From: Bauldia litoralis
GTDB lineage: Bacteria > Pseudomonadota > Alphaproteobacteria > Rhizobiales > Kaistiaceae
Direction of reading: 5' to 3'
Assembly: GCA_945882315.1 (NCBI GenBank)
Contig: CAMCWB010000035.1
Span: 1 to 40,028 of the forward strand
DNA length: 40,028 nt
Of the stretch, positions 1,547 to 27,155 are shown piece after piece (position 1 is the first letter of the stretch; the number at the start of each line of letters is the position of its first letter). A program made the position numbers and the translations under genes. The notes beneath the pieces were generated by a model, which searched no databases, was not told the origin of the DNA, and saw only the letters and a list, made by a program, of their open reading frames with translations.

Positions 1547-1755
1547 GACACGGATTCAACTAGACGGTCCTTCGCCTCCTCAAGGAAGCCGATGACCTGA
1601 TCTCGAGTAACCGTGGGAAAGCCTTCGAGGAATTGGTCGATGGAGTCACCCGCCTCGATGTAGTCGAGAAGGGTCTGCACCGGCACGCGTGTCCCGCGAA
1701 ACACCGGCGTTCCGCCCATGATCTCAGGGTCACGAAGGACAACGGACTGTTTCAT
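1543..1755 (-). CDS. DUF433 antitoxin-like protein
   Basis: About 70 residues from ATG at 1755: MKQSVVLRDPEIMGGTPVFR and onward, with RGTRVPVQTLLDYIEAG and a C-terminal helix. The DP-x-I-x-G-G-TPVFRGTRVPV signature is typical of DUF433, a small winged-helix-like family regularly paired with DUF5615 toxins. A TTG at 1791 would add 12 residues that do not look like the family, so ATG is preferred although its ribosome-binding site is weak. It is the first gene of a two-gene unit and probably both neutralises the toxin and represses the operon; that role is inferred from the family. Confidence 0.85.
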   Translation of the reverse strand: MKQSVVLRDPEIMGGTPVFRGTRVPVQTLLDYIEAGDSIDQFLEGFPTVTRDQVIGFLEEAKDRLVESVS

Positions 1756-1827
1756 TTGCCCACGGTAAGCGAATCGCGGCCAGTTATGCAACCGTGCAGG
1801 TATCGCAGCGTATTTCTTGTCGATCCG

Positions 1828-2394: not shown

Positions 2395-3227
2395 GCCGGC
2401 AGGTGCTTTTCGACCCAGTTCGCGATGTCGGCCATGACCTTCTCCTTGTCGAGATCGTTGAGAAGGTCGTGGACATGGCCCTCATAGAGCTTCAGCGTCT
2501 TGTCCGCCGAGCCGGCATTGTCGAAGAACTGCTGGCTGCCGCCCGGCTTGGTGACGACGTCGGCCGCGCCGTGGAGGATGAGGACCGGCAGCGTGATCAG
2601 TGAGAATTCGAGCGTCAGCCGCTCGTCGGCGCGCCACATCTCGGCGACGGTGAGCGTCGGCTGGACCTCGTCCTTGACGAAAGGATCGTTGTTCATTGCC
2701 TCGACGACCTTCGGGTCGCGCGAGAAGTCCTTGATCGGCAGCCGGAGCACATGCAGATGCGGCGTCAGGTGGGCGAGGCCCTTGAGCAGCGACAGCGCGA
2801 ATTCCGGCGCATAGACGCGGAAGGCGAAGCTTTCGCAGATCAGGCCGGCGAGCTCCGACTGATGATCGAGAGCGTAGCTCGATGCGATGACGCCGCCAGC
2901 GCTGTGGCCGAGCAGGAACACCGGCAGGCCGGGCTCGCGCGACTTGGCGATCTTGATCATCGCGTGTACGTCGCCGATATATTCCTGGAACTTGTTGATG
3001 AAATAGCGCTCGCCTTCCGACTTGCCGCGGCCGCGCAGATCGAGCGCGTAGACTGCAAAGCCCTTCGCGACGAGCTGGTCGGCAACCCATAAATAATGGC
3101 CGCTATGCGAATTGAAGCCGTGGCAAACGGCGACCACGGCGCGCGGCGTTCCGGCCGGCTTCCAGGAGCGCAGGAAAATCTTGAGACCGCCTTCGCCGAC
3201 GAAGGTTTCTTCCGTTGGTTGAGTCAT
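2391..3227 (-). CDS. monoacylglycerol lipase / lysophospholipase-like alpha/beta hydrolase
   Basis: A 278-residue serine hydrolase of the monoacylglycerol lipase / PldB-like class (Hydrolase_4). The nucleophile is Ser109 in GHSAGG, the acid Asp223 in LHGAADVV and the base His253 in GHVHDLLND, the usual MGL ending. CHGFNSHSGHY near residue 35 forms the oxyanion region and DLRGRGKSEG follows. There is no signal peptide, so it is cytoplasmic. Such enzymes cleave monoacylglycerols or lysophospholipids. It is the first gene of a two-gene unit with the HD protein. The 18-bp palindrome at 3383-3400 lies about 155 bases upstream and could be its operator. Confidence 0.9.
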   Translation of the reverse strand: MTQPTEETFVGEGGLKIFLRSWKPAGTPRAVVAVCHGFNSHSGHYLWVADQLVAKGFAVYALDLRGRGKSEGERYFINKFQEYIGDVHAMIKIAKSREPGLPVFLLGHSAGGVIASSYALDHQSELAGLICESFAFRVYAPEFALSLLKGLAHLTPHLHVLRLPIKDFSRDPKVVEAMNNDPFVKDEVQPTLTVAEMWRADERLTLEFSLITLPVLILHGAADVVTKPGGSQQFFDNAGSADKTLKLYEGHVHDLLNDLDKEKVMADIANWVEKHLPA

Positions 3228-9037: not shown

Positions 9038-9149
9038 GCTCCTCCCGCACCGGCCCGCCCGCGTTGTGGTCAGCGGTTCGGTTGGCCGATGCCGGGATTA
9101 TTCTCGGGAAGCCCGCGAAGAGCAATGGGACGAGCGTCTCCCATCCGCT

Positions 9150-9230
9150 CGTCCCCGCGAAAAGCGGGGACCCAGGGCCACGGGCGCTGTGGTTCGCCAT
9201 CCTGGATTCCCGCTTTCGCGGGAATGAGCG
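9150..9230. repeat. palindromic repeat family 1, copy A (intergenic, diverged)
   Basis: Two inverted arms with internal hairpins (CCCCGCGAAAAGCGGGG on the left, CCCGCTTTCGCGGG on the right) around a spacer. It is the same design as the four copies inside the cobalamin genes but more diverged. It lies just downstream of the first carboxymuconolactone-decarboxylase-like gene and upstream of the flavin monooxygenase gene, where it could affect message ends. Confidence 0.8.
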
Positions 9231-9243: not shown

Positions 9244-9675
9244 TCAGGAAGGTTTCGCCGCCTCGTCGATCTTCTTGAAAGCCCGCATCGCCGCGCGGAT
9301 GGCGTGGTTGGCCTTGGGCAGGCCGATATAGGGCGTCGCCTGCACGAAGACGCCGACGATCTCCTCGCGCGTCAGGCCGAGATTGAGCGCCACCTTCACA
9401 TGCCATTCGAGCTCGCCGACGAGGTCCTGCGCGGCCATCGTGGTGAGGACTATGATCTCCTTGGTCTTCATGTCGAAGGGCGTCTCGGCCCAGACCATGC
9501 CGAAGCACCATTCGACGATGCCCTGCGTATGGGTCGAGGACATCGCGAAGAATTCTTCCGACGATTGCCCGTCGTTCCCGTAGATGCCCATCTCGTCGCG
9601 GATCTTCCGCGCCCTGTCCAAGCGGTCTTCGACCAGCGGCCGTTCGAGTTTCGGCCAGATTCCATCGTCGCTCAT
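9244..9675 (-). CDS. carboxymuconolactone decarboxylase family protein, paralogue 1
   Basis: A 143-residue all-helical protein of the carboxymuconolactone decarboxylase (CMD) family. Seen: HTQGIVEWCFGMVWAE, the KTKEIIVLTTMAAQDL helix and HVKVALNLGLTREEIVGV, the core CMD repeat. It lacks the CxxC pair of AhpD-type peroxidases, so it is not an AhpD reductase. Known relatives decarboxylate gamma-carboxymuconolactone or act as small oligomeric isomerases and decarboxylases; the substrate here is unknown. It is closely similar to the two following paralogues and is the only one without a lysine-rich tail. Upstream purine-rich sequence provides the ribosome-binding site. Confidence 0.88.
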   Translation of the reverse strand: MSDDGIWPKLERPLVEDRLDRARKIRDEMGIYGNDGQSSEEFFAMSSTHTQGIVEWCFGMVWAETPFDMKTKEIIVLTTMAAQDLVGELEWHVKVALNLGLTREEIVGVFVQATPYIGLPKANHAIRAAMRAFKKIDEAAKPS

Positions 9676-9762
9676 TGCTTCCTCCCGTTTCTTCTGTCGG
9701 ATTAGGCGTGCATGCCGAACCGCCGCCGGAGCGGCCGCGGTCTCGATCGAGCCGGCCGAAGC

Positions 9763-10254
9763 CTAGCTCTTTTTCTTCTTGCTCTTGGCAGCCTTGGCCT
9801 TCGCCTTGACCGGCTGGCCGTCGGCGCGGCTGGTGCCCTTCTCGTCGACTTCCTTGAAGGCGCGGAAGACGGCGGCCAGCGCGTGGTTGACCTTCGGGTA
9901 GCCGCAATAGGGCGTGCACTGCACGATCACCGCGACGATCTCTTTCCGCGTCAGCCCGAGATTGAGCGCCGATTTCGTGTGCCACTCGATCTCGCGGTCG
10001 AAATCCTGCGCGACCATGGCGGAGAGGGTGGCGATTTCCTTGATCTTGGGATCGATGGTGTCGTCGGCCCAGATGAGCCCGAAGCACCATTCCATCAGGC
10101 CTTGGGTGTGGACCTTCGAATATTTGTAAAAGTCGGCATTGTTCTGGCCGTCCTTGCCGTAGATCCCCATCTTGTCGCGGATCTTTTTGGCGCTCTCGAA
10201 CCGCTCGCCGATCTCCGGCCGCTGAAGATCCTCCCAGCGAAACTCCTCGCTCAT
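9763..10254 (-). CDS. carboxymuconolactone decarboxylase family protein, paralogue 2
   Basis: A 163-residue CMD-family protein from ATG at 10254 (MSEEFRWEDLQRPEIG). The frame stays open further upstream, but an ATG with purine-rich leader and alignment to its paralogues fix this start. The core (HTQGLMEWCFGLIWADDTID, SALNLGLTRKEIVAVIVQ) matches its neighbours. The C terminus ends in a strongly basic tail, KAKAKAAKSKKKKS, absent from most small CMD proteins I know; it could bind nucleic acid or membrane, or simply be disordered. There is no CxxC motif. It is 87 bases upstream of paralogue 1. Confidence 0.87.
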   Translation of the reverse strand: MSEEFRWEDLQRPEIGERFESAKKIRDKMGIYGKDGQNNADFYKYSKVHTQGLMEWCFGLIWADDTIDPKIKEIATLSAMVAQDFDREIEWHTKSALNLGLTRKEIVAVIVQCTPYCGYPKVNHALAAVFRAFKEVDEKGTSRADGQPVKAKAKAAKSKKKKS

Positions 10255-10340
10255 GGCAACTCCCTCCGTCGGGCCCGGTTGATTCCGAGCCTCCAGGAGG
10301 GGAGTACAGCACGTTCCGGAAGCTTCGTCAGGAGGCCAGG

Positions 10341-10438
10341 CCGTAGGGTGGGCAAAGCTGCGAAGCAGCGTGCCCACGCATGACCAAGTCGTCGGATCCG
10401 CGTGGGCATGGTCTTCGGCCTCTGCCCACCCTACGGGG
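10341..10438. repeat. palindromic repeat family 2, full copy
   Basis: Long imperfect inverted repeat. The left arm begins CCGTAGGGTGGGCAAAGC and ends GTGCCCACGC; the right arm is its near complement, ending CTGCCCACCCTACGG. It lies between CMD paralogues 2 and 3. A half copy with the same ends is at 23197-23235, next to cobQ. Repeats of this GTAGGGTGGGCAAAG type are scattered through many bacterial genomes. Confidence 0.85.
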
Positions 10439-10460
10439 CGTACAGGCGCGAGAAAAAAAC

Positions 10461-10931
10461 TCAGGCCTTCTTGGCCTTGCCCTTCGCCTTGGTCAGCTTC
10501 TTGGCGGCCTTGCCTTTGGCTTCGTCGACTTCCTTGAAGGCCCGGACCGCAGCCTTGATGGCGTGGTTGGTCTTGGGCAGGCCGACATAGGGCGAGCACT
10601 GGACGATCGTCGCGATGATCTGCTCCTTGGTGAGGCCGACATTCATCGCCGACTTGCAATGCCATTCGAGTTCGTCCGGCAGGTCCTGCGCGACCATGGT
10701 CGAGAGGACGATCATTTCCTTCTGTTTCAGGTCGAGCGTCGGCTCGGCCCAGACCATGCCGAAGCACCACTCATAGATGCCCTGGGTGTGGAGCGGCGAG
10801 ACGTCGTAATGGCCCTCGCGGCCCTGGCCGCCCTTGCCGTAGATGCCCATCTTGTCGCGGATGACGCGGGCCTTCTTCAGGCGCTCTTCGACCGGGGGGC
10901 GCTCGAGACGATCCCAGACTTCGTTGCTCAT
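10461..10931 (-). CDS. carboxymuconolactone decarboxylase family protein, paralogue 3
   Basis: A 156-residue CMD-family protein and the first of three tandem paralogues in transcription order. Core motifs: HTQGIYEWCFGMVWAEPTLD, MIVLSTMVAQDLPDELEWH and NVGLTKEQIIATIVQCSPYVG. Its tail KKLTKAKGKAKKA is lysine-rich, as in paralogue 2. AAGGAGAG lies about 8 bases before the ATG. Between it and paralogue 2 lies a palindromic repeat, which may end or process the message. The tandem arrangement with divergence in the tails suggests local duplication followed by specialisation; the substrate is unknown. Confidence 0.88.
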   Translation of the reverse strand: MSNEVWDRLERPPVEERLKKARVIRDKMGIYGKGGQGREGHYDVSPLHTQGIYEWCFGMVWAEPTLDLKQKEMIVLSTMVAQDLPDELEWHCKSAMNVGLTKEQIIATIVQCSPYVGLPKTNHAIKAAVRAFKEVDEAKGKAAKKLTKAKGKAKKA

Positions 10932-13995: not shown

Positions 13996-14177
13996 TTCGT
14001 CTCCCGCCGCTGCGAATGCCCGTCGGGAGACTATCCCGCGACCCGGCCGCGTGTCTCGCCATCGGCAGAATTAGCCGCCGGAAATGTTGTTAGCTTCGTA
14101 ACCGGAAAGGATTCAAGTCGAGCTATTGCTTGGCACTCCCCCTTGCCCTCCAACCCGCTCCCGCCTACGGTAAATCC

Positions 14178-14366
14178 GCGTTGGTTCTTCGGGGCGTTGA
14201 GTGCTGAGGATTAAACGGGAATGCGGTGAGGAAGAGGGTTCAGACCCGCCGATGCCGCAGCTGCCCCCGCAACTGTAAGCGGCGAGTCCTCCGCATCGGC
14301 CACTGGGAAACCGGGAAGGCGCGGATTTCGGACTTCGACCCGTGAGCCAGGAGACCGGCCGACGCG
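14178..14366 (+). ncRNA. cobalamin riboswitch
   Basis: The conserved core of the cobalamin riboswitch is directly readable. It includes GGGAATGCGGTG near 14217, GCTGCCCCCGCAACTGTAAG near 14260, CCACTGGGAAACCGGGAAGG near 14300 and the terminal B12 box AGCCAGGAGACCGGCC at 14345-14360. It lies about 50 bases before cbtB and should reduce expression of the cbtBA-cobPWNOQ operon when cobalamin is plentiful. The 5' limit is approximate. Confidence 0.95.
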
Positions 14367-14402
14367 TCCCGAAAAACCCTTCCGTAGGTGGGACGGAGAA
14401 GG
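14365..14402 (+). promoter_or_regulatory. possible riboswitch expression platform
   Basis: CGTCCC at 14365-14370 can pair with GGGACG at 14390-14395. Within the loop, CCTTC at 14378-14382 can pair with GAAGG at 14398-14402, part of the cbtB ribosome-binding site GGAGAAGGAG. No T-rich tail follows, so control of translation start rather than termination is the likelier mode. This is inference from base pairing by eye. Confidence 0.45.
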
Positions 14403-14600: not shown

Positions 14601-15458
14601 ATGTTCAAGACGATCGTCTTCAGCGCCTTCGGCGCAGCGCTCGCTATTTGCCTTTCGGTGACGGTGCTGCAACTCGCCACCACCGAGCCGCTCATCCTCC
14701 ACGCCGAGGAATTCGAGGGCGCGGCGCCCGCCCATGACCACGGCCCGGCAGCTTCCGTGCCTCACACTTCCGTCGTCCCGGCGAAAGCCGGGATCCATGC
14801 TTCGGGTCCGGCCATGGCTCACCAAATGGATTCCGGCTTTCGCCGGAATGACGCCGTGGGGGAGGCAACACTGATCCATGCGGCCTTCGCCGCAGAGGAA
14901 GTGTCGGTATGGCTGGTCCACGATACGGCTGCCGCGGGCGAGGCAGAAGAATGGGCCCCGGCCGACGGCATCGAACGGACCCTCTTTACCGGCCTGGCCA
15001 ATCTGGTGATCGGCTTTGCCATCTCGCTGATGCTTGTCGGCGTCATGGTCCTCAAGGGCGATCCGATCGACGCAAGGCGCGGCCTCCTCTGGGGCGTCGC
15101 CGGCTTTGCCGCCGTCTCGCTGCTGCCGGCCCTCGGCCTGCCGCCGGAACTGCCGGGCACGCCGGCCGCCGACATCGCCGACCGGCAGCTCTGGTGGCTG
15201 CTGACCGCCGCGGCCTCGGCCGGCGGGATCGGGCTCATGGTCTTCGGCAGGAACTGGGGCGTCATCGCCGGCGGCCTTGCCCTGGTCATCGCCCCGCATT
15301 TCATCGGCGCGCCGGTACCGCCCAGCCACGACGTCTCCTATCCCGGCGCGCTTGCCGGCGAATTCGTCGTTGCGTCGCTGGTCGTCAGTGCCGTCCTCTG
15401 GTCGGTTGCCGGACTCGTCTCGGGAGCGCTCTACCGGCGTTTCTCGGCCTCGGCCTGA
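14601..15458 (+). CDS. cbtA: CbtA, cobalt transporter membrane subunit
   Basis: A 285-residue CbtA-family membrane protein. The membrane segments are near residues 5-25, 130-152, 163-182, 198-217, 220-238 and 255-278. The loop after the first segment contains HAEEFEGAAPAHDHG, a histidine- and acid-rich stretch that probably meets cobalt. That loop also carries a translated palindromic repeat at residues about 57-84 (VVPAKAGIH ... MDSGFRRND). The insert sits between membrane segments, so it need not disturb the pore. Partner of CbtB, in the riboswitch operon; supplies cobalt for CobN. Confidence 0.92.
   Translation: MFKTIVFSAFGAALAICLSVTVLQLATTEPLILHAEEFEGAAPAHDHGPAASVPHTSVVPAKAGIHASGPAMAHQMDSGFRRNDAVGEATLIHAAFAAEEVSVWLVHDTAAAGEAEEWAPADGIERTLFTGLANLVIGFAISLMLVGVMVLKGDPIDARRGLLWGVAGFAAVSLLPALGLPPELPGTPAADIADRQLWWLLTAAASAGGIGLMVFGRNWGVIAGGLALVIAPHFIGAPVPPSHDVSYPGALAGEFVVASLVVSAVLWSVAGLVSGALYRRFSASA
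14771..14853. repeat. palindromic repeat family 1, copy B (inside cbtA)
   Basis: 83 bp made of two 27-bp inverted arms around a 29-bp spacer. Each arm forms a hairpin, CCCGGCGAAAGCCGGG on the left and TCCGGCTTTCGCCGGA on the right. It is read in frame in cbtA as VVPAKAGIH, then spacer, then MDSGFRRND. 83 is not a multiple of three, so one more base (or a target duplication) must have come with it. Confidence 0.92.
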
Positions 15459-15464
15459 CCGAGC

Positions 15465-16004
15465 ATGGGTGAGGCCCATATCCTGGTCCTCGGCGGGCAG
15501 CGCTCCGGCAAAAGCCGCTTCGCCGAGGAACTCGTCGCGGGCAGCCGCAAGCCCCGCGTCTATGTCGCGACGGCGGCCCGCCGCGACGGCGAGATGGCCG
15601 AGCGCATCGCGGCGCATCGCATACGCCGTGGCGCCGAGTGGACGACCATCGAGGAGCCGCTTGAACTGCCCGCTATCCTCGGCCAGCTGGCGGGGGAGGG
15701 CACGGCCGTCCTGGTCGATTGCCTGACGCTCTGGCTCTCCAACCTCTTCGAGGCGAAGCGCGACATCGGGAAGGAGGCGGACGCCCTGCTCGCGGCGCTC
15801 TCCGCCCGCAGCGCACCGGTCGTCCTTGTCTCGGGCGAGGTCGGCCTCGGCGTCATTCCCGACAATGCGCTCGCCCGCGCCTATGCCGACGCGCTCGGCA
15901 CCCTCAACCAGCGCGTCGCCGCCGCCGTCGGCCGCGTCGTCTTCATGGCCGCGGGCCAGCCGGTCCTCGTCAAACCATCCGCCTTTCCGGAGATCGCCCT
16001 GTGA
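15465..16004 (+). CDS. cobP: adenosylcobinamide kinase / guanylyltransferase
   Basis: A 179-residue bifunctional enzyme (CobP in Pseudomonas naming, CobU in Salmonella). It phosphorylates adenosylcobinamide and then transfers GMP to give adenosyl-GDP-cobinamide in the cytoplasm. The P-loop is GGQRSGKS at residues 10-17, the RIAAHRIRRG stretch holds the histidine expected to carry GMP, VDCLTLWLSN is the Walker-B-like segment, and VSGEVGLGVIPDNALAR is a family hallmark. The ATG lies 7 bases after the cbtA stop. Its stop overlaps the GTG of cobW (GTGA), which suggests coupled translation. Confidence 0.95.
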   Translation: MGEAHILVLGGQRSGKSRFAEELVAGSRKPRVYVATAARRDGEMAERIAAHRIRRGAEWTTIEEPLELPAILGQLAGEGTAVLVDCLTLWLSNLFEAKRDIGKEADALLAALSARSAPVVLVSGEVGLGVIPDNALARAYADALGTLNQRVAAAVGRVVFMAAGQPVLVKPSAFPEIAL

Positions 16005-17023
16005 ACGCGCCCGCCCGCATCCCCGCCACCATCGTCACCGGCTTCCTCGGCGCCGGCAAGACGACGCTGATCCGCAACCTCATCGCGCAGGCCAAGGGCC
16101 GCCGCATCGCCATCCTCGTCAACGAATTCGGCGACATGGGTTTCGACGGTTCGCTGCTCGCCGATTGCGGCGATTCCGACTGCAAGCCCGATACGATCGT
16201 CGAGCTCGCCAACGGCTGCATCTGCTGCACGGTCGCCGACGAATTCCTGCCGACCATGGAAGCGCTGCTCGCCCGCGATCCGGCGCCCGATCACATCGTC
16301 ATAGAGACGTCGGGCCTCGCTTTGCCGCAGCCGCTGGTGCGCGCCTTCTCCTGGCCGAGCGTCAAGCATCGCGTCACGGTCGACGGCGTCGTCACCGTCG
16401 TCGACGCCGAAGCGGTCGCGGCCGGCCGCTTCGCCCCCGATCCGGAAGCGACCAAGGCGGCGCTCGCCGCCGATCCGGCCATCGATCATGACGACCCGAT
16501 CGAGGAACTGTTCGAGGACCAGCTCCGCTGCGCCGACCTCGTCGTCGTCAGCAAATCCGATCTCGTCTCCGAGGCGACGCTTCTCGAAGCCGAAGCCATC
16601 ATCCGCCGGGAGGCGCGGCCGGGCACCGGCATGATGCGGAGCGCCGGCGGCAACCTCTCGCCCGAGGTGCTGCTCGGCCTGTCGTCGGCGAGCGAGGCCG
16701 ACATGACCGGCCGCGAGAGCCATCACGACCTCGAAGGCGAAGAGCACGACCATGACGATTTCACCAGCTTCGTGATCGCACCGACCGCGGCGGCTTCGCT
16801 TGACGCGCTCCGCGCCCGCATCGCGACGACGCTCGCCATCCCCGGCGTGCTGCGCATCAAGGGCAGGGCGCCCGTCACCGGCCGTGCCGTGCCGGCCGTG
16901 ATCCAGGCGGTCGGCGCCCGTGTCGAATCCTGGTTCGCGCCGGAAGCCGGTACCGCCGGCCTCGTCGTCATCGGCCTCCGCGACATGGACCGCGCCGCCA
17001 TCGAAGCGGCCCTCGGCGGATAG
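16001..17023 (+). CDS. cobW: CobW, G3E GTPase for cobalamin synthesis
   Basis: A 340-residue G3E-family GTPase and metal chaperone thought to deliver cobalt to the CobNST chelatase. It shows Walker A GFLGAGKTT near residue 14, the metal-binding CxCC in ELANGCICCTVADEF, VIETSGLALP and a histidine/acid-rich stretch, HHDLEGEEHDHDD, near residue 240. The start is GTG at 16001, overlapping the cobP stop by four bases; a longer frame upstream is a shadow of cobP. It is followed after 2 bases by cobN, the enzyme it is expected to serve. Confidence 0.95.
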   Translation: MNAPARIPATIVTGFLGAGKTTLIRNLIAQAKGRRIAILVNEFGDMGFDGSLLADCGDSDCKPDTIVELANGCICCTVADEFLPTMEALLARDPAPDHIVIETSGLALPQPLVRAFSWPSVKHRVTVDGVVTVVDAEAVAAGRFAPDPEATKAALAADPAIDHDDPIEELFEDQLRCADLVVVSKSDLVSEATLLEAEAIIRREARPGTGMMRSAGGNLSPEVLLGLSSASEADMTGRESHHDLEGEEHDHDDFTSFVIAPTAAASLDALRARIATTLAIPGVLRIKGRAPVTGRAVPAVIQAVGARVESWFAPEAGTAGLVVIGLRDMDRAAIEAALGG

Positions 17024-17025
17024 AC

Positions 17026-20000
17026 ATGCATCTTCTCGCGGCCGAACCCGGACGGATCGACGACGGCGAGGCGGCGGTCGATCTCGACCAGCCGCCCGCC
17101 GATATCGTCTTTCTGTCGGCGGCCGACTCCGAGCTGGCGTCACTCGTCGCGGCGGCCGGGCGCTCAAGCTTTGGCCTGTCGCTGCGCGTCGCCAATCTTG
17201 GCCGGCTCGCGCATCCGCTGTCGGTCGATCTCTATGTCGAGAAGACGCTGGAGCGCTCGAAACTCGTCGTCATCCGCATGATGGGTGGCGCCGGCTACTG
17301 GTCCTACGGGCTCGATCGGCTGCGGGCGCTGGCGCGCGGCGGCGGTCCGGCGCTCATCGTCATCCCCGGGGAAGATCGCTGGGACGAGAATCTGGAAGCC
17401 TATTCGACCGGCGCCGGCGAAACCGCGCGCCTCCTCTGGCGCTATCTCGTCGAGGGCGGCGCCACCAATTGTGGCCATGCGCTGCAACTGGCGGCGCATT
17501 GTCTCGGCAAGGCACCGCAGCCGCCGCAACCCGAGATCATCCCCCATGCCGGCGGCTACTGGCCGGGCGTCGGGCCGATCGGGCTCGACGACCTCCGCCG
17601 GCGCCTCGGGCCTGACCTGCCAATCGCGCCAATCGTCTTCTACCGCGCCTATGTCCAGAGCGGCCTGACGGCGGCGATCGACGCGCTCGCCGGCGAACTG
17701 CAGCGGAGCGGCATCAACCCTCTGCCGATCTTCGTCACCAGTCTCAAGGACCGTGAATCCGAGGCATTTCTCGAAGCGGCGTTCGCGGCACTGCCGCCCG
17801 ACATCATCCTCAACACGACGGCCTTTTCCGTGTCGCGCATCGGCGCCGCGCAGGCGAGCACGCTGCTCGACAGGCCCGGCCGGCCGGTCCTTCAGGTGGT
17901 GCTTGCCGGCACGACGGAAGACAATTGGCGCGAGAGTACCCGCGGCCTGACGCCGCGCGACCTGACCATGAATGTCGTCCTGCCCGAGGTCGACGGCCGT
18001 ATCCTCACCCGCGCCGTCGCCTTCAAGGCGGAGACCGCCGGCCCCGCCGGCACGCAGGCGGAGCATCGGCCGCTGCCCGATCGCGTCGCTTTCGTGGCGC
18101 GTCAGGCCAAGGCCTGGATCGATCTCGGTAGGAAGCCTGCCGCCGAAAAACGCGTCGCGATCATCCTCTCCAACTACCCGAACCGCGACGGCCGCCTCGC
18201 CAACGGCGTCGGCCTCGACACGCCGGAGAGCGCGGTGATCGTGGCGGCGGCGTTGCGGGAGGCGGGGCACGATCTCGCCGGCTTCCCGGAGAGCAACGCG
18301 GCGCTGATGGATGTCCTGCTCGGCGGCGTCACAAATGACATCTCCCGCTTCTCGTCATCCCGGCGAAAGCCGGAATCCACCGCTGAGGTTGTTATGGATC
18401 CCGGCTTTCGCCGGGATGACGACGTGGGGAGGCTCTCGCTCACGGACTATCTCGACTTCTTCGCCTCTTTGCCCGAAGCCAACCGGAGCGCCCTGACCGA
18501 ACGCTGGGGGGCGCCCGAAGACGATCCATTCTTCACGGACGGCAGCTTCCATCTCGCCATCCATCGCTTCGGCAATGTCGTCGTCGGTATCCAGCCCTCG
18601 CGCGGCTACGACATCGATCCGAAGGCGACCTATCATGCGCCCGATCTCGTCCCGCCGCATCATTATCTGGCCTTCTATGCCTGGCTGCGGACCGCATTCG
18701 CCGCCGAAGCGATCGTCCATCTCGGCAAGCATGGCAATCTTGAATGGCTGCCCGGTAAGGCGCTCGGGCTTTCGGAGACCTGCTGGCCGGAAGTGATCCT
18801 CGGCGCCGTACCGGTGATCTACCCGTTCATCGTCAACGATCCCGGCGAGGGCAGCCAGGCCAAGCGGCGATCCTCCGCCGTGATCGTCGATCACCTGATG
18901 CCGGCGATGACCCGCGCCGAGATTCATGGCGGCCTCGCCGAGCTGGAGACGCTGATCGACGAATATTACCTCGCGACCGGCGTCGACCGCCGCCGGCGCG
19001 AATACCTCCGCACCGAGATCATCGCGACGGCCGAGCGCCATGGCCTCGACCGCGACCTCGGCATGGCTCGCGGCGACGGCGATGAGGCGCTGCGCGTCCT
19101 CGATGCGCATCTCTGCGAATTGAAGGAGATGCAGATCCGCGACGGCCTGCACATCCTCGGCCGCTCGCCGGGCGATCGCCAGCGCATCGACACGCTCGTC
19201 GCCATCGCCCGCGTCCCGCGCTCCGGCGGTCGACCGGAGGACCAGTCCCTCCACCGCGCCATTGCCGCCGATCTCGGTCTCGACGGCTTCGACCCGCTCG
19301 ATTGCGACATGACGGCGGCGTGGGCGGGTGCGCGACCGGCTGCTTTGGTTGAGGTCTCGGAGAAGCCCTGGCGCAGCAATGGCGATACCGTCGAGCGGAT
19401 CGAAATGTTGGCGGCGCGGCTTGTCGAACACTGCCTCGCCACCGCCTCCGTCATCCCGGCGAAAGCCGGGATCCATTCGAGCGCTCCACACGCGGATGGC
19501 TTCATGGATTCCGGCTTTCGTCGGAATGACGCCGAGGTTGGGGCGGGTTCTGATCTGCTAACCGAACCTCGGAGGCCCCATCAGTCGACTACAGCCATCC
19601 TCGCCTGGATCGCCACCGATCTCGCGCCCGCGCTCGACAAGTCCGGCGCCGCCGAGATCGGCGCGGTGCTTACCGCGCTCGACGGCCGCTTCGTCCCGCC
19701 GGGACCGTCCGGGGCGCCGACGCGCGGTCGGCCCGACGTCCTGCCGACTGGCCGGAATTTCTACTCGGTCGATGTCCGCGCCGTGCCGACGGCGGCGGCA
19801 TGGGCGATCGGCCGCCAATCCGCCGATGCGCTGGCGCTCCGTTATTTCCAGGACGAGGGCTGCTGGCCGGGCGCGATCGCCATGTCGGCCTGGGGCACGT
19901 CCAACATGCGCACCGGCGGCGACGACATCGCGCAGGTGCTGGCGCTGATCGGCGCGCAGCCGGCCTGGGAAAAAGGCACCGGCCGCGTGACGGGTTTCAC

Positions 20001-20952
20001 CGTGATGCCGCTCGGCGAGCTCGGCCGGCCGCGCATCGACGTGACGCTGCGCATCTCCGGCATGTTCCGCGACGCCTTCCCGGCGCAGATCTACCTCATC
20101 GATTCCGCCATGCGCGCCATCGCGGCGCTGGACGAGCCGGATGACGCCAACCCGATCGCCATGGCGGCGCGGGCGACCGCGTCACGTCTGTCCGGGGCCG
20201 GGCTGGACGGCGCGCACGCCGCCCGCCATGCCGCGGCGCGCATCTTCGGCGCCAAGCCGGGCGCCTATGGCGCCGGACTGCAGGCGATGATCGACGAAGG
20301 CATCTGGGAAAAACGCGGCGACCTCGCCGACGCCTTCCTGGCCTGGAGCAGCTTCGCCTATGGCGGCGGCGCCGAAGGCGAAACGGTGCCGGACCTACTC
20401 AAGGAGCGTCTTGCCGGTGCCGATGCGGTCTTCCACGCACAGGACAATCGCGAGCACGACATCCTCGATTCCGACGACTACTACCAGTTCCAGGGTGGGC
20501 TCGCGGCGGCCGTCGAGACGCTGAAGGGCGTTGCGCCGCGCGTCTATCACGGCGACCATTCGCGGCCCGAGAAGCCGGTCGTCCGGGCGCTCTCGGAAGA
20601 GATCGCCCGTGTCGTCCGCGGCCGCGCCGCCAATCCGAAATGGATCGCGGGCGTCATGCGCCACGGCTACAAGGGCGCCTTCGAGATGGCCGCGACGGTC
20701 GATTATCTCTTCGCTTATGCGGCGACGACCAATGCCGTCCAGGACCACCATTTCGACCAGCTCTTCGACGCCTATATCGCCGATGACCGTGTCCGTGCCT
20801 TCATCGCTGAGCACAATGCGCCGGCGCTGGCGGAGATGGCGGCGCGCTTCCGCGAGGCGATCGAGCGCGGCCTCTGGGCGCCGCGCGCCAACAGCGCCTA
20901 TGATCACCTCTCCGCATTGATTTCCGGGCCCCGTCAGGAGGCGGCCGAATGA
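17026..20952 (+). CDS. cobN: cobaltochelatase large subunit CobN (two translated repeats)
   Basis: A 1308-residue CobN, the large porphyrin-binding subunit of the ATP-dependent aerobic cobaltochelatase. With CobS and CobT (not in this window) it inserts cobalt into hydrogenobyrinic acid a,c-diamide. HLGKHGNLEWLPGKALGLS near residue 565 and YPFIVNDPGEGSQAKRR further on are family hallmarks, and the C-terminal third contains AFLAWSSFAYGG. The protein is slightly longer than usual because it carries two translated palindromic repeats, at residues about 443-465 ([10 protein letters not shown]) and 808-835 (VIPAKAGIH ... MDSGFRRND). Both look like surface-loop positions. Its stop overlaps the cobO ATG (ATGA). 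Confidence 0.96.
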   Translation: MHLLAAEPGRIDDGEAAVDLDQPPADIVFLSAADSELASLVAAAGRSSFGLSLRVANLGRLAHPLSVDLYVEKTLERSKLVVIRMMGGAGYWSYGLDRLRALARGGGPALIVIPGEDRWDENLEAYSTGAGETARLLWRYLVEGGATNCGHALQLAAHCLGKAPQPPQPEIIPHAGGYWPGVGPIGLDDLRRRLGPDLPIAPIVFYRAYVQSGLTAAIDALAGELQRSGINPLPIFVTSLKDRESEAFLEAAFAALPPDIILNTTAFSVSRIGAAQASTLLDRPGRPVLQVVLAGTTEDNWRESTRGLTPRDLTMNVVLPEVDGRILTRAVAFKAETAGPAGTQAEHRPLPDRVAFVARQAKAWIDLGRKPAAEKRVAIILSNYPNRDGRLANGVGLDTPESAVIVAAALREAGHDLAGFPESNAALMDVLLGGVTNDISRFSSSRRKPESTAEVVMDPGFRRDDDVGRLSLTDYLDFFASLPEANRSALTERWGAPEDDPFFTDGSFHLAIHRFGNVVVGIQPSRGYDIDPKATYHAPDLVPPHHYLAFYAWLRTAFAAEAIVHLGKHGNLEWLPGKALGLSETCWPEVILGAVPVIYPFIVNDPGEGSQAKRRSSAVIVDHLMPAMTRAEIHGGLAELETLIDEYYLATGVDRRRREYLRTEIIATAERHGLDRDLGMARGDGDEALRVLDAHLCELKEMQIRDGLHILGRSPGDRQRIDTLVAIARVPRSGGRPEDQSLHRAIAADLGLDGFDPLDCDMTAAWAGARPAALVEVSEKPWRSNGDTVERIEMLAARLVEHCLATASVIPAKAGIHSSAPHADGFMDSGFRRNDAEVGAGSDLLTEPRRPHQSTTAILAWIATDLAPALDKSGAAEIGAVLTALDGRFVPPGPSGAPTRGRPDVLPTGRNFYSVDVRAVPTAAAWAIGRQSADALALRYFQDEGCWPGAIAMSAWGTSNMRTGGDDIAQVLALIGAQPAWEKGTGRVTGFTVMPLGELGRPRIDVTLRISGMFRDAFPAQIYLIDSAMRAIAALDEPDDANPIAMAARATASRLSGAGLDGAHAARHAAARIFGAKPGAYGAGLQAMIDEGIWEKRGDLADAFLAWSSFAYGGGAEGETVPDLLKERLAGADAVFHAQDNREHDILDSDDYYQFQGGLAAAVETLKGVAPRVYHGDHSRPEKPVVRALSEEIARVVRGRAANPKWIAGVMRHGYKGAFEMAATVDYLFAYAATTNAVQDHHFDQLFDAYIADDRVRAFIAEHNAPALAEMAARFREAIERGLWAPRANSAYDHLSALISGPRQEAAE
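18353..18421. repeat. palindromic repeat family 1, copy C (inside cobN)
   Basis: 69 bp (23 codons): 27-bp left arm, 15-bp spacer, 27-bp right arm, the arms being near-perfect reverse complements. The left arm is read in the frame SSRRKPES, different from copies B and D, and the right arm as [10 protein letters not shown]. The cobN frame stays open. Confidence 0.93.
19449..19531. repeat. palindromic repeat family 1, copy D (inside cobN)
   Basis: 83 bp with 27-bp arms and a 29-bp spacer, the same lengths as copy B but with unrelated spacer bases. It is read as VIPAKAGIH, then spacer, then MDSGFRRND. It lies between LAARLVEHCLAT and a segment leading to AILAWIATDLAP in cobN. Confidence 0.93.
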
Positions 20953-21572
20953 AAGAAGACATGACCGAAGCCGAGCTCGACGAACGCCACGCCGAAAAGA
21001 TGCGCAAGAAGAAGGCGGCGCGGGACAAGATTCTCGCCACCAAGACGATCGAGAAGGGCCTGCTCATCGTCCACACCGGCAAGGGCAAGGGCAAATCGAC
21101 CGCCGCCTTCGGCATGATCTTCCGCATGCTTGGGCATGGCGAGAAGGTCGCCATCATCCAGTTCGTCAAGGGCAAGTGGCAGACCGGCGAGCGCGTCGCG
21201 CTGAAGAAATTCGGCGACCTCGTCTCGATCAACACGATGGGTGAGGGCTTCACCTGGGAGACGCAGGACCGGCAGCGCGATCTCGCCGCCGCCCGCGCCG
21301 CCTGGGAGCGCGCCAAGGCGATCATCGCGGCGGGCGAACACCGCCTCGTGCTCCTCGACGAGCTCAACATCGTGCTGCGCTACGACTACTTGCCGATCGC
21401 GGAGATCGTCGCCTTCCTCCGCGACGAGAAGCCGGCCAATGTCCATGTCGTCGTCACCGGCCGCAACGCCCGCGACGAGCTGATCGAGATCGCCGACCTC
21501 GTCACCGAGATGGAGATGATCAAGCACCCGTTCCGCTCGGGTGTGAAGGCGCAACCGGGCATCGAGTTTTGA
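20949..21572 (+). CDS. cobO: cob(I)yrinic acid a,c-diamide adenosyltransferase
   Basis: A 207-residue corrinoid adenosyltransferase of the CobO/BtuR/CobA type. It transfers the adenosyl group of ATP to cob(I)yrinic acid a,c-diamide to form the Co-C bond. The N terminus is a basic helical extension rich in Lys and Arg. The P-loop is TGKGKGKST at residues 43-51, [10 protein letters not shown] follows, and [12 protein letters not shown] and [20 protein letters not shown] are typical of the family. It starts on the ATGA overlap with cobN and ends on a TTGA overlap with cobQ. Confidence 0.96.
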
Positions 21573-23200
21573 CGCATGTCCCGGCCCTCATGATCCAGGG
21601 GACCGGCAGCCATGTCGGCAAGTCGGTCATGGTGGCGGGGCTGTGCCGGGCGCTTCTGCGGCGCGGCCTGAAGGTCGCGCCGTTCAAGCCGCAGAACATG
21701 TCAAACAATGCTGCGGTGGCCGAAGGCGGCGGCGAGATCGGCCGCGCCCAGGCGCTGCAGGCGCGGGCATCGGGCTTGATGCCCTCCGTTGATATGAACC
21801 CAATTCTCTTGAAGCCCGAGAGCGAGACGGGCGCGCAGATCATCGTGCAGGGCCGGCGCTTCGGCACGATGCGGACCGGCGAATTCGGCAGGCGCAAAGC
21901 AGAGCTTCTGCCCTTCGTGCTGGAGAGTTTTGCCCGCGTCGGCGCCGATGCCGACATCGTTCTGGTCGAGGGCGCCGGCAGTCCTGCCGAGATCAACCTC
22001 CGCCGCGGCGACATCGCCAATATGGGCTTCGCCGAAGCAGCGAATGTGCCTGTCGTGCTGGTCGGCGATATCGATCGCGGCGGCGTCATCGCCAGCCTGG
22101 TCGGCACGTATGAAGTGCTCGACGCGCCGGACCGGTCGCGGATCAAGGGGTTCCTTATCAACAAATTCCGTGGCGACGCCGGCCTCTTCTCCGAGGGCCT
22201 CCGCTTCATCGAAGAACGCACCGGCTGGCCCTGCTTCGGCGTCGTGCCGTGGTTCGAGGGCGCCAATGCGCTGCCGGCGGAGGATGTGTTGGGATTGGTG
22301 GGGGACTCCGCTCTGTCTCCGTCATCCCGGCGCCCGGGTCCGGCCTCCGGCCGGCCCGAGCATGAACTCCAGCCGGGATCCATAACGGCCTCTGCAATGG
22401 ATCCCGGCTTTCGCCGGGATGACGACAGTGTGCGGAGCGAGCGTCAAATCCACATCGCCGTTCCCGCGCTGCCCCGCATCGCCAATTTCGATGATCTCGA
22501 CCCGCTGCGGCTTGAGCCCGGCGTGGCGCTGACCATCGTGCGCGCCGGCGAGCCGATCCCGGCCGACGCCGATCTTGTCCTGCTGCCAGGATCGAAATCG
22601 ACGATCGCAGACCTGGCCTTCCTGCGGGCGCAGGGTTGGGACATCGACATTCTTGCCCATCACAGGCGCGGCGGCAGGGTGCTCGGCCTCTGCGGCGGCT
22701 ATCAGATGCTCGGCCGTACCATCGCCGATCCGGACGGCGTCGAAGGCCGTAGCGAAGTCGTCGCCGGTCTCGGTCTTCTCGACGTCGAGACCGCGATGAG
22801 CGGCGACAAGACCACGACGTCGGTCACGGGCCGGCATGTGGCGTCGGGCGAAACCTTAGTCGGCTATGAAATCCATCTCGGTCGCACGGCCGGCCGTGAT
22901 TGTGGGCGTCCCTTCGTCGACCTCGGCGGCCGCGGAGATGGCGCGCATTCGGCGGACGGACTCGTCGCCGGCACCTATGTGCACGGCATCTTCGCATCGG
23001 ATGGTTTTCGTCGCGCTTGGCTCGCGGCACTCGGCGGCAGGCATTCCGTCTTTGAATACGAAGCCGGCGTTGAAGCCACGCTCGATGCGCTGGCCGAGCA
23101 CCTGGAGAAGCATGTCGACGTCGAGCGGCTTTTAGCTATTGCAGGTATCGGCGAGGCAAGAACGATAGCCCGCGTCCGAACGCTCGGTGATGTCGCGTAG
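21569..23200 (+). CDS. cobQ: cobyric acid synthase CobQ (with translated repeat)
   Basis: A 543-residue glutamine-dependent amidotransferase that amidates four carboxylates of adenosylcobyrinic acid a,c-diamide to give cobyric acid. The N-terminal domain has the P-loop GTGSHVGKS (residues 11-19), and the C-terminal class-I-like glutaminase domain has Cys375 in [11 protein letters not shown] and His472 in GTYVHGIF. A translated palindromic repeat (residues about 251-285) sits between [16 protein letters not shown] and [18 protein letters not shown], the junction of the two domains, and makes the protein longer than usual. The start is TTG at 21569, overlapping the cobO stop. The stop codon lies in the end of another repeat. 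Confidence 0.95.
22320..22424. repeat. palindromic repeat family 1, copy E (inside cobQ, expanded)
   Basis: 105 bp (35 codons). The right arm is a perfect family-1 arm, read as [10 protein letters not shown]. The left arm starts and ends like the others, but its GAAA tetraloop region is replaced by a longer GC-rich stretch that is itself nearly palindromic (CGGGTCCGGCCTCCGGCCGG). It looks like a repeat with a second element in its loop, still in frame. Confidence 0.85.
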
Positions 23201-25223: not shown

Positions 25224-27155
25224 ATGATGCCTTTCCGCCGGCGCTCCAGCGCCGTCTTCATGTTTTTCGCCGCGCTTGCCGCGGGCTGTGCGGCTGCCGG
25301 AGCGCAGACGGTCGAGATTCCGGAGATCGTCGTCACACCGCTCTTCACGCCGACCACGATCGACAAGATCGGCAGTTCGGTGTCGGTGGTCGGCCGCAAG
25401 GAGATCGAGCGGATGTCGCCGGCCTCGGCGGCGCAGCTCTTTCGCAGCATCCCGGGCGTGACCGTCGTCGAATCCGGCGGTCCCGGCGGCTCGACCGACA
25501 TCCGCCTGCGCGGTGCCGAAACCGGCCAGACGCTGGTCCTGATCGATGGCGTCCGCGTCAACGACTTCTCGACGACGCGCGACGATTTCGATTTCGCGCT
25601 GCTGTCGCCGAACGACATCGAGCGCATCGAGATTCTGCGCGGGCCCCAGAGCGCGCTCTACGGCTCGGATGCGATGGGCGGCGTCATCAATATCATCACG
25701 CGCAAGGCCGGCAGCGGCAAGACGGCCTCGGCGAAGGTCCAGGGCGGCGCCTACGGCACTCACTCGGAAGAGCTTTCGGCCGGCATGAGCGCCGGCGATT
25801 TCCGGATGCGTTTCAGCGGCTCTTACTTCTCGACCGAAGGCTTCTCGCGGCGCGGCGATCGTGAGGCGAACGAGGCCGACGGCTCGGAGAAATGGGCCGG
25901 CAACGTCAGCGCGTCCTATGCGCCGGCCGATGGCCCGCGGGTCGATGTCGGCGTCAACGCCTTCAACCAATCCGCCGACTATGACGGGACGTCCTCATCG
26001 ACCGGGCCGGGCGCCCTCAACACGGTCGACCGCAGCCTCGTTTCCGGCTTCGCCAAGCTGACCATGCCGAAGCTCGGCGACCGCTACGACCAGTCCTTCA
26101 CTGGCTTCTTCACGGATTCCTCGCGCGACAATCACGAGCCGGCGAGCACGATCCCTCTGTCGGAATTCGACGCGACCTCCGGCGGCGCCGAATATCGCGG
26201 CACGCTCGACCTCGACAGGGCGGGCAGCTTCACCGCCGGGCTTCGCGCCGAGCATGAGGTGGCCAGCAATTTTGCCCAAACCACGGGCGATTTCCCGGGC
26301 TATGAAAGCGAGCGGACCTTCTATGCGCTCTATGCCCTCCATCAGTTTTCGCCGCGCGACGACGTCCATCTTACCTTCGGCGGCCGCTATGATGGCGAGA
26401 TCGACGGCGATGGCTTCCTCACCGGCCGCGCCACCGCCGCCTGGCAGATCCCGTCGAGCGAGACGATTCTGCGCGCCAGCGTCGGCACCGGCGCGAAGCG
26501 GCCGACCGCCTACCAGATCGGCAACAACCTCTTCGCCGCCTCGGAGTTTCCCGGCGAGACGGTCGACACGAACCTCGCGCCCGAAAAGAGCATCGGCGTC
26601 GATGCCGGCATCGAGCAGCTTCTCTTCGACGGCTCGCTGAATGTTTCCGCGACCGCCTTCTATAACCGCTTCACCGACCTCCTCAGCTTCACGCCCTTCA
26701 ATTGCGATACCTGTTCCTTCTCGGATGGCGCCTATGAGAATATCGACAGCGCCGAGACGGCCGGCGTCGAGCTCTCGGTCGAATCCGACATCCTGCCCGG
26801 CCTCCTCAAGGTCGGCGCCAGCTACACCTATCTCTACAGCCGCAATCTCGATACCGGCCGGCCGCTGCCGCGCCGGCCCGAGCACAGCGCCAGCTTCGAT
26901 GTTACCGTTTACGAGACCGGCCTGTTCGAGATGACGCTCTCCGGCGTGATCGTCGGCGAGCGCTTCAATCGTGCCAGCGATGCCGAGCCGATGCCCTCCT
27001 ATGCCCGCCTCGATTTCTCCGGCAAGCTGCACATCGCCGAGGGGACGGAGCTTTTCGGCCGCATAGAAAACCTGACCAACATCGACTATCAGGACCCGGT
27101 CGGCTTCAACGCGCCCGGCCTTTCGGCCTATGTCGGCCTGAGCTGGACGCATTAG
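25224..27155 (+). CDS. btuB: TonB-dependent receptor, BtuB-like
   Basis: A 643-residue outer membrane receptor. The signal peptide covers about residues 1-28 (ending AAGAQ), a TonB-box-like EIVVTP follows at once, and the plug domain runs to about residue 150 (LFRSIPGVTVVESGGPG, DIRLRGAETGQTLVLIDGVRV, RIEILRGPQSALYGSDAMGG). The rest is a 22-strand-type barrel ending in aromatic WTH. Plug sequence and neighbours point to vitamin B12 or other corrinoids. GGAG lies about 10 bases before the ATG. No cobalamin riboswitch is visible in the divergent 137-base gap, unlike most btuB genes. A heme or siderophore receptor is less likely. Confidence 0.87.
   Translation: MMPFRRRSSAVFMFFAALAAGCAAAGAQTVEIPEIVVTPLFTPTTIDKIGSSVSVVGRKEIERMSPASAAQLFRSIPGVTVVESGGPGGSTDIRLRGAETGQTLVLIDGVRVNDFSTTRDDFDFALLSPNDIERIEILRGPQSALYGSDAMGGVINIITRKAGSGKTASAKVQGGAYGTHSEELSAGMSAGDFRMRFSGSYFSTEGFSRRGDREANEADGSEKWAGNVSASYAPADGPRVDVGVNAFNQSADYDGTSSSTGPGALNTVDRSLVSGFAKLTMPKLGDRYDQSFTGFFTDSSRDNHEPASTIPLSEFDATSGGAEYRGTLDLDRAGSFTAGLRAEHEVASNFAQTTGDFPGYESERTFYALYALHQFSPRDDVHLTFGGRYDGEIDGDGFLTGRATAAWQIPSSETILRASVGTGAKRPTAYQIGNNLFAASEFPGETVDTNLAPEKSIGVDAGIEQLLFDGSLNVSATAFYNRFTDLLSFTPFNCDTCSFSDGAYENIDSAETAGVELSVESDILPGLLKVGASYTYLYSRNLDTGRPLPRRPEHSASFDVTVYETGLFEMTLSGVIVGERFNRASDAEPMPSYARLDFSGKLHIAEGTELFGRIENLTNIDYQDPVGFNAPGLSAYVGLSWTH

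What the first reader, a model, noticed from the sequence alone, without database searches (positions are those of the whole stretch)
14771..22424. One palindromic repeat family translated in frame four times within a single cobalamin operon
Copies at 14771-14853 (cbtA), 18353-18421 and 19449-19531 (cobN) and 22320-22424 (cobQ) share two 27-bp inverted arms. All four leave the host frame open and add about 23-35 residues that end MDxGFRR(D/N)D. A fifth copy at 9150 is intergenic. Coding palindromic elements of this kind are best known from Rickettsia. A cluster of four in one operon for one pathway suggests local spread, or tolerance because these proteins accept loop insertions. This is the strongest candidate for an undescribed phenomenon in the window.
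Basis: partly seen in the sequence, partly recalled or inferred. Interest (0 to 1): 0.85.

Follow-up and report, generated by a model that had tools for sequence, protein, structure and literature searches.

The report
Selfish DNA repeats translated inside cobaltochelatase
Four copies of a small hairpin-forming DNA repeat, of a kind that normally sits between genes, lie in frame inside three vitamin B12 genes of this bacterium, and the enzyme that inserts cobalt (CobN) proves to carry unrelated repeats of this kind at the same places in other, distant bacteria.

Summary
Confirmed. Four inverted dimers of a CGTC-tagged REP (8-bp stem, GAAA loop, CCA tail) lie in frame in cbtA, cobN (twice) and cobQ of one riboswitch-led B12 operon; the fifth (9146-9230) is a diverged, intergenic sister. 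Of 20 such elements found in the 3.98-Mb genome, 16 are intergenic by my gene model and the 4 genic ones are all here. Relatives have empty sites in cobQ and cbtA; AlphaFold gives low confidence at the cobN and cobQ inserts. Intragenic CGTC-REP dimers, Rickettsia RPE-4/6 included, were described in 2013 (PMC3733652), so the kind is known. What I found no report of is the target: CobN linkers carry in-frame, sequence-unrelated, genomically repeated palindromes in Kaistia, Pseudomonas and Pseudanabaena too, and sibling Pseudanabaena species carry different ones at the same site. Best explanation: REPs land widely, selection removes nearly all coding insertions, and CobN linkers are among the rare protein sites that tolerate them, with turnover. 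Local spread inside the operon is only weakly supported. The mobilising enzyme is unknown: a search for the Y1/RAYT transposase domain found none in 27 of 28 family genomes.

The parts
14165..14377 (+). cobalamin riboswitch (RF00174) upstream of the operon
   Evidence: cmscan 118.3 bits, gathering score 31.5
14601..15458 (+). cbtA, cobalt transporter subunit, carries insert 1
   Evidence: ORF 285 aa, PF09490 E 6.9e-42
14771..14853 (+). CGTC-REP dimer 1, in frame in cbtA (SVVPAKAGIH...MDSGFRRND)
   Evidence: absent from the cbtA of 20 of 20 relatives aligned
15465..16004 (+). cobU/cobP-type cobinamide kinase; the repeat scans show no copy here
   Evidence: PF02283
16001..17023 (+). cobW-type metallochaperone (an ORF start at 15719 is also possible); the repeat scans show no copy here
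   Evidence: PF02492, PF07683, gene model
17026..20952 (+). cobN, cobaltochelatase large subunit, 1308 aa, carries inserts 2 and 3
   Evidence: PF02514 1256 bits
18353..18421 (+). CGTC-REP dimer 2 in cobN linker 1 (about residues 443-466)
   Evidence: model pLDDT below 50 for residues 444-464
19449..19531 (+). CGTC-REP dimer 3 in cobN linker 2 (about residues 808-836)
   Evidence: model pLDDT below 50 for residues 810-842 and 846-849
20949..21572 (+). cobO adenosyltransferase; the repeat scans show no copy here
   Evidence: PF02572
21569..23200 (+). cobQ, cobyric acid synthase, carries insert 4 between its two domains
   Evidence: PF01656 7-239 and PF07685 296-479
22320..22424 (+). CGTC-REP dimer 4 in cobQ ([37 protein letters not shown])
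   Evidence: model pLDDT below 50 for residues 245-290
22333..22370 (.). second palindrome nested in the left arm of dimer 4
   Evidence: sequence; only weak matches in the roughly 10% of the genome at hand
9146..9230 (.). diverged sister-type REP dimer (CTC..CCCCGCGAAAGCGGGG), intergenic

Best explanation
The four inserts are dimers of a CGTC-type repetitive palindrome (REP) that spreads in this genome, and they are translated as passengers. REPs enter DNA broadly (by an unknown enzyme). Insertions in coding DNA are removed by selection unless they are in frame, free of stops and in an exposed linker that takes extra residues. The two CobN linkers (about residues 437-468 and 805-853), the CobQ inter-domain linker and the variable loop of CbtA are such sites. 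CobN linkers are unusually tolerant in general: unrelated bacteria carry unrelated repeat families there, and these are exchanged over short times, so the linker behaves almost like intergenic DNA inside a gene. Shown here: repeat identity, empty sites in relatives, genic versus intergenic counts in the genomes examined, unrelated families at the same CobN sites, low model confidence at the inserts. Inferred: that protein tolerance, and not a DNA target, is the cause; that the proteins are made and work; the mode of movement.
For: Arms are repeats: 33 arms in G000 and matches in 22 of 28 family genomes, up to 188 arms in one. Location: 20 elements in G000, 4 genic, all in this operon; nearest relative G006, 32 places, 1 genic, in a pseudouridine synthase. 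Taking the operon (8.6 kb of about 3.3 Mb coding) as fixed by one copy, the other three falling in it by chance has p of about 2e-8 (my arithmetic, coding share). Empty sites: of 24 genomes with an aligned cobQ, 22 lack a comparable insert (G015 has about ten extra residues); G006 has a different, repeat-type insert there. cbtA: 20 of 20 relatives lack it. CobN linkers: in the 56 loci L084-L139 linker 1 is 17-18 aa in 56 and linker 2 is 12-23 aa in 41, but several Kaistia, two Pseudomonas and eleven cyanobacterial loci have longer inserts, most of them palindromic. Copy number of those repeats in their own genomes: Kaistia linker-1 repeat 37-102 arms in 5 of 6 Kaistia genomes asked (0 in G019), Pseudomonas insulae 190, Pseudomonas sp. 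BMS12 115 (nearly all of those listed at 2 mismatches), Pseudanabaena 50, 29 and 42; reversed-pattern controls 0. Elsewhere those repeats are intergenic: of 30 Kaistia arm loci 3 lie in CDS, all CobN; of 30 P. insulae arm loci the only Pfam-supported CDS is CobN, 2 arms; of 30 Pseudanabaena biceps loci 2 lie in CDS, CobN and UvrC. Turnover: Pseudanabaena siblings carry different repeats at the same linker. Controls: strong inverted repeats in CDS were 3 per 328 kb and 5 per 322 kb in stretches of G000 and Kaistia G024, none REP-like by my reading, below a codon-shuffle null of about 10 and 11; in 80 named CobN genes 18 against 4.3 expected, and 16 in 972 neighbouring genes over 902 kb, about three times as much DNA. 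Structure.
Against: CobN is not the only coding home: UvrC (Pseudanabaena), a pseudouridine synthase (G006) and the tail of a ribonucleotide reductase (G005) carry one each, and one neighbouring gene of Pseudanabaena L125 looks repeat-like. Tolerance alone does not explain four copies in one operon. Members of the Kaistia genus group G008, G011, G014 and G018 have short linkers of 13-23 aa. Some linker inserts are not shown to be repeats: the Kaistia linker-2 hairpin had no other copy in the DNA I held, nor did the G006 CobN inserts beyond weak matches, and the GATCCCCC type of cyanobacteria was found only in CobN within the loci held. Of the 18 inverted repeats, at least four (in L060, L082, L099, L105) look like chance pairs outside the linkers. 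By folding energy corrected for GC the strongest window of a locus lies in linker 1 or 2 in 8 of 80 (1.5 expected), and the Kaistia inserts do not stand out. In the CobN model other short stretches are also below pLDDT 50 (385-397, 576-581, 604-610, 625-633 and the end), and low confidence is expected where relatives have gaps. No congeneric relative of the window's genome was available, so its insertion points are not exact to the base. Several genomes were looked at because their CobN has an insert, so their counts are not an unbiased sample. Gene calls are from my own codon-usage model, not from annotation.
Confidence: 0.78

Rival explanations
1. Local spread: one element entered the operon and copied itself, or converted its neighbours, into nearby permissive sites, so the cluster reflects short-range movement and not only tolerance.
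For: Arms of the four copies are more alike (mean 2.17 mismatches) than quartets in general (mean 5.0; 100 of 3060 as low; 18 elements compared). Two linkers of one cobN share a repeat type in G000, in Rhizobium L070 and in Pseudanabaena L120 and L133.
Against: The spacers between arms are unrelated among the four copies by inspection. In Kaistia the two CobN linkers carry different repeats. CobN is hit across phyla, which local spread does not explain.
Confidence: 0.25
2. The inserts do something: the hairpins in the long riboswitch-led mRNA set stability or slow the ribosome at domain borders, or the added peptides help assembly, and selection keeps them.
For: Placement between domains or confident structure elements, occurrence at the same linkers in distant phyla with unrelated hairpins, and exchange of one hairpin for another among siblings.
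Against: Most CobN have no insert (linker 1 is 17-18 aa in 56 of 56 loci L084-L139). Sequence, length and frame are not conserved.
Confidence: 0.12
3. Relaxed selection: the B12 genes are decaying or dispensable here and collect insertions.
For: B12 can often be taken up (general knowledge), and a TonB-dependent receptor lies at 25224-27155.
Against: The frames of cbtA, cobN and cobQ are open over full length with intact Pfam domains, and the insertions sit in linkers or a variable loop.
Confidence: 0.07
4. The residues are native protein sequence that resembles the repeat.
For: None found.
Against: The same DNA is present as intergenic copies in the genome and relatives lack it.
Confidence: 0.01

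Closest known systems
CGTC-tagged REPs, intragenic units (PMC3733652, BMC Genomics 2013)
   Same: CGTC end, 8-bp stem, 4-nt loop, CCA tail, inverted dimers, mostly intergenic, not tied to a transposase gene, some dimers in frame coding for 20-30 aa
   Different: That paper's main text stresses DNA replication, repair and RNA-modification genes, has no word starting with 'cob', and notes a shared site only for recB of two Xanthomonas. Here all genic copies sit in one B12 operon, and CobN linkers are shared sites for unrelated repeat families. Its supplementary gene list could not be read.
Rickettsia palindromic elements RPE-4 and RPE-6 (through PMC3733652)
   Same: palindromic repeats translated in frame; that paper places RPE-4/6 among CGTC repeats
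   Different: host near the free-living Kaistia (inference), few genic copies, concentration in one pathway; no sequence comparison with RPEs was made here
REPINs (PMC3116915; passages seen)
   Same: inverted REP doublets predicted to form one long hairpin
   Different: its abstract has the doublets randomly distributed in extragenic space; REPINs are tied to RAYT transposases (recalled), and no Y1_Tnp match was found in G000

Membership tests
CGTC-REP (family 1 type) | unpaired CGTC at one end | tested here: met
   outer ends CGTC...GACG in the copies
CGTC-REP (family 1 type) | 8-bp stem with complementary A-T first, 4-nt loop, CCA tail | tested here: met
   CGTC ATCCCGGC GAAA GCCGGGAT CCA, read (one cbtA arm has G in place of A at stem position 1); criteria from the paper
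CGTC-REP (family 1 type) | dispersed, mostly intergenic, often paired in opposite orientation | tested here: met
   16 of 20 elements intergenic; 12 of these 16 hold an inverted pair at up to 4 mismatches
CGTC-REP (family 1 type) | no association with tyrosine transposase genes | tested here: met
   PF01797 not found in 27 of 28 family genomes including G000; one fragment in G017; control rings in 5 of 14 genomes
Rickettsia palindromic element (RPE) | in-frame insertion into ORFs of functional proteins | tested here: inconclusive
   in-frame with intact domains; function of the proteins not tested
Rickettsia palindromic element (RPE) | sequence membership in an RPE family | not tested
   no RPE sequences were compared
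REPIN with RAYT | cognate RAYT (Y1_Tnp) gene in the genome | tested here: not met
   no PF01797 match in G000; the assembly is in 162 contigs, so loss in a gap is possible
REPIN with RAYT | GTAG-tagged palindrome | tested here: not met
   ends are CGTC

The most novel reading that the evidence does not exclude
CobN linkers are a shared safe harbour for REP-type repeats across bacteria: once one is present it marks and keeps the site for the next (nesting, replacement), so unrelated repeat families replace one another at the same protein position in alpha- and gammaproteobacteria and cyanobacteria, and the B12 operon as a whole is a preferred coding refuge for such DNA.
Probability: 0.4. Interest if true: 0.75.

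Novelty: new variant of a known kind. Interest (0 to 1): 0.6.

Why it matters
REPs are named for being outside genes. One protein that takes them up again and again, in unrelated bacteria and with unrelated repeats, gives a natural series of insertion experiments: how much foreign peptide a chelatase linker accepts, how fast repeats turn over, and whether coding copies show where REPs land before selection acts. It also gives a test bed for the unknown mobilising activity of CGTC repeats, which occur here in genomes in which no Y1 transposase domain was found.

Tried and rejected
Rejected: native protein sequence. Rejected: mobilisation by a resident RAYT, as far as PF01797 shows. Rejected as genic: G000 elements at C14, C16:9646, C25, C65 and C71, where long ORFs overlap the repeat but are shadow ORFs or N-terminal overextensions by Pfam and gene model; P. 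insulae L340/L341, L347 and L357, whose ORFs have no Pfam match and oppose another ORF; G004:C7, intergenic by gene model.

Led nowhere or weak: a peptide search with the second cobN insert over 297 genomes of the order gave 19 matches in 11 genomes. Five have open frames of 300 aa or more: cobN, cbtA, cbtA antisense, the C71 shadow ORF and G004:C7; the other 14 have open frames of 28-194 aa and I did not check them. The search is insensitive: it missed the first cobN copy and cobQ. The nested cobQ palindrome had only weak matches. GC-corrected folding energy put 14 of 7389 CobN windows and 4 of 18807 other windows beyond z -4; 7 of the 14 are in linker 2, none in linker 1; windows overlap, and the position given for L087 is doubtful because its ORF runs upstream. 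Linker-2 inserts of Kaistia, the CobN inserts of G006 and the GATCCCCC type of cyanobacteria could not be shown to be high-copy. Inserts of Rhizobium L070 and cyanobacterium L113 at other CobN positions were read, not counted genome-wide. Element counts use overlapping patterns, so 35 matches in the Kaistia stretches and 7 in the G000 stretches (none in CDS) are upper figures. The Kaistia pattern is nearly palindromic, so a place can count on both strands.

Rows chosen or dropped: one search used the longest ORF of each locus and some rows were on the wrong strand; one search replaced it with the best BLAST hit. The relatives and the named loci overlap (for example L032 and L073, L033 and L076, L035 and L060, L040 and L064); counts per 80 use the named loci only, and drops identical CDS (109 left). 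The tree used 44 of the CobN rows, the CobN model 26, the CobQ model 23 of 25 (two partial ones left out).
Full report
OBSERVATION. The four copies are present as described. Each is an inverted pair of an arm whose consensus is CGTC ATCCCGGC GAAA GCCGGGAT CCA. The three host genes lie in a tight plus-strand cluster, cbtA, cobU/P, cobW, cobN, cobO, cobQ (14601-23200), with a cobalamin riboswitch upstream at 14165-14377. The frames are open and the Pfam domains intact. In all four the right arm is read as MD(P/S)GFRR(D/N)D, but the left arm is read in two different frames, so nothing is designed for one peptide. The cobQ copy has a second palindrome nested in its left arm. The fifth copy (9146-9230) is a diverged sister type between genes.

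WHAT IT IS. In the window's own genome (3.98 Mb, 162 contigs) the degenerate arm pattern has 33 matches at up to 2 mismatches, which form 20 elements. I called genes with a codon-usage model trained on the window and 400 kb of the same genome. Four elements are in genes, the four of the finding; 16 of 16 others are intergenic. Pattern matches occur in 22 of 28 genomes of the family, from 1 to 188. Named relatives put the organism near Kaistia and Bauldia. By the criteria given in PMC3733652 (passages, sections 15 and 16 and part 1 of section 17 seen), the arm fits the CGTC REPs: CGTC end, 8-bp stem, 4-nt loop, CCA tail, inverted dimers, no linked transposase. The Y1_Tnp domain of RAYTs was not found in 27 of 28 family genomes, with one fragment in G017 (the same search rings in 5 of 14 control genomes).

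EMPTY SITES. Of 24 genomes with an aligned cobQ, 22 go from the first to the second domain without a comparable insert (G015 has about ten extra residues). Besides G000 only G006, its sister in the CobN tree, has an insert there, and it is another repeat type (CCCCGCGAAAGCGGGG), with 10 matches at up to 3 mismatches in the G006 DNA I held, its own site included; that DNA was mostly taken around other repeat matches. In cbtA 20 of 20 relatives lack the insert, in a loop that varies among them. The AlphaFold models have low confidence at the inserts: CobN residues 444-464, 810-842 and 846-849 in a 526-residue piece (mean pLDDT 71.7; shorter stretches at 385-397, 576-581, 604-610, 625-633 and the end are low too), and CobQ 245-290, the only low stretch besides its last 11 residues (mean 80.9), between its CbiA and GATase_3 domains.

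COBN IS A SHARED SITE. The alignment of CobN from relatives and from 80 named genomes shows linker 1 at 17-18 aa in 56 of 56 loci L084-L139, and linker 2 at 12-23 aa in 41 of these 56. Several Kaistia have 64-108 aa in linker 1 (L034, L052, L053, L060, L073, L076, L083) and four of these seven 52-63 aa in linker 2 (L034, L060, L073, L076); other members of that genus group (G008, G011, G014, G018) have short linkers. Pseudomonas insulae and Pseudomonas sp. BMS12 have 35 and 34 aa in linker 2; eleven cyanobacterial loci have 32-75 aa there. The DNA of most of these inserts is palindromic, and where I could count it, repeated in its own genome: the Kaistia linker-1 repeat has 41, 37, 90, 102 and 77 arms in G016, G020, G022, G023 and G024 and 0 in G000, G006 and G019; the Pseudomonas repeat, of GTAGGAGCG form (recalled as a REP type), has 190 arms in P. 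insulae and 115 in BMS12; the Pseudanabaena repeat has 50, 29 and 42 arms in three genomes. These families look unrelated in sequence to the CGTC repeat and to one another. G004, in another genus, has the same CGTC type in linker 1, while its sister G009 has a short linker, so that insertion is independent, or was lost in G009. By reading I count 18 of the 80 named CobN with repeat-like inserts somewhere in the gene (L060, L070, L073, L076, L079, L083, L087, L104, L106, L109, L112, L113, L115, L117, L120, L125, L130, L133); this is a reading, not a score, and not all are shown to be repeats.

ARE OTHER GENES HIT AS OFTEN? Kaistia: of 30 arm loci (6 best matches in each of 5 genomes) 27 are intergenic and 3 are in a CDS; all three are CobN. 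P. insulae: of 30 arm loci (of 190 arms) 6 lie in a called CDS; the 2 with Pfam support are the two arms in CobN, the other 4 lie in three ORFs without Pfam match that oppose another ORF; 2 touch gene edges and 22 are intergenic. Pseudanabaena biceps: of 30 loci (of 50 arms) two are in a CDS, CobN and UvrC, one touches an edge, 27 are intergenic. G006: of 32 places one is in a CDS, a pseudouridine synthase. G005 has one in the tail of a ribonucleotide reductase (PF02867). Uvr genes and pseudouridine synthases fit the 2013 paper, which lists such genes. In 400 kb each of G000 and G024, strong inverted repeats in CDS numbered 3 and 5, under a codon-shuffle null of about 10 and 11, and none looked like a REP. 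In the 80 named loci CobN had 18 (null 4.3), at least four of them chance-like pairs away from the linkers, and 972 neighbouring genes had 16 in 902 kb, one of them repeat-like by reading (L125). By GC-corrected folding the strongest coding window of a locus lies in CobN linker 1 or 2 in 8 of 80 loci, 1.5 expected. The genomes of Kaistia, Pseudomonas and Pseudanabaena were chosen because their CobN has an insert, so these counts say how rare other coding copies are, not how often CobN is hit.

TURNOVER. Seven closely related Pseudanabaena CobN carry palindromic repeats at linker 2, but of at least two types: CCCTCACCCC in three (L112, L117, L125), GATCCCCC in three (L106, L120, L133), a further form in L109. 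A site near residue 190 shows the same exchange: GATCCCCC in L106, L117, L120 and L133, CCCTCACCCC in L112 and L125. This speaks for repeated gain and loss and against one old insertion. Kaistia G016, G023 and L083 lack the linker-2 insert that L034, L073 and L076 have.

HOW IT WORKS. Most likely REPs land broadly; coding copies survive only where frame, lack of stops and an exposed linker allow. The consensus arms are open in most frames (read by hand: three of three frames of the left arm, two of three of the right arm), which makes survival easy. That protein tolerance is the cause is inferred from the one thing the cases share, the linker, since repeats, hosts and base composition differ. 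Local spread may add to it: the arms of the four copies are closer to one another than most quartets (100 of 3060 as low) but their spacers look unrelated. A function for the hairpins cannot be excluded.

LITERATURE. Two searches that asked for cobN together with palindromic or REP terms found 0 papers; a third, looser one found 67 papers, of which the 20 listed do not hold cobN. The library is open access only. PMC3733652 has no word starting with 'cob' in its main text; its supplementary list was not readable. A 2025 REP survey (PMC12306157) has none of 'intragenic', 'cobN' or 'cobalamin' in its text (term search only). PMC3116915 (passages) reports that 14 of the 1067 most abundant REP 16-mers overlap genes in one Pseudomonas.

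VERDICT. The element is a new member of a known kind, intragenic CGTC-REP dimers; the target pattern, one operon here and CobN linkers across phyla, looks like a new variant and deserves an annotated genome-wide test.

Noticed in passing
window 9247-10931, minus strand: Three neighbouring genes (9247-9675, 9766-10254, 10464-10931) look like tandem paralogues, with 273-nt blocks 71-75% identical to the first.
   Followed up: no
L248 (G006), gene 712-1860 minus: CGTC-REP dimer in frame between the N-terminal part and the catalytic domain of an RNA pseudouridine synthase (PF00849), a gene class the 2013 paper also lists.
   Followed up: partly
L219 (G005), 1426-3147 minus: CGTC-type dimer in frame in the C-terminal tail of a ribonucleotide reductase (PF02867), shortly before its final cysteines.
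   Followed up: partly
L371 (Pseudanabaena biceps), 1027-2994 minus: The same repeat type as in its CobN lies in frame in UvrC.
   Followed up: partly
L113 and L070: Cyanobacterial CobN with GTAGGGGCG-type palindromes near reference residues 500 and 770, and Rhizobium CobN with CATCTCCCCC-type dimers near 190 and 752: further CobN sites.
   Followed up: partly
L121 and L124, CobN linker 2: Cylindrospermum has a short tandem repeat and Chroococcus a repeat-like stretch in the same linker, so it may also take other kinds of repeats.
   Followed up: no
family genomes: CGTC repeats reach 188 arms in a genome (G005) in which no Y1_Tnp domain was found; the mobilising enzyme of these repeats is unknown.
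   Followed up: no
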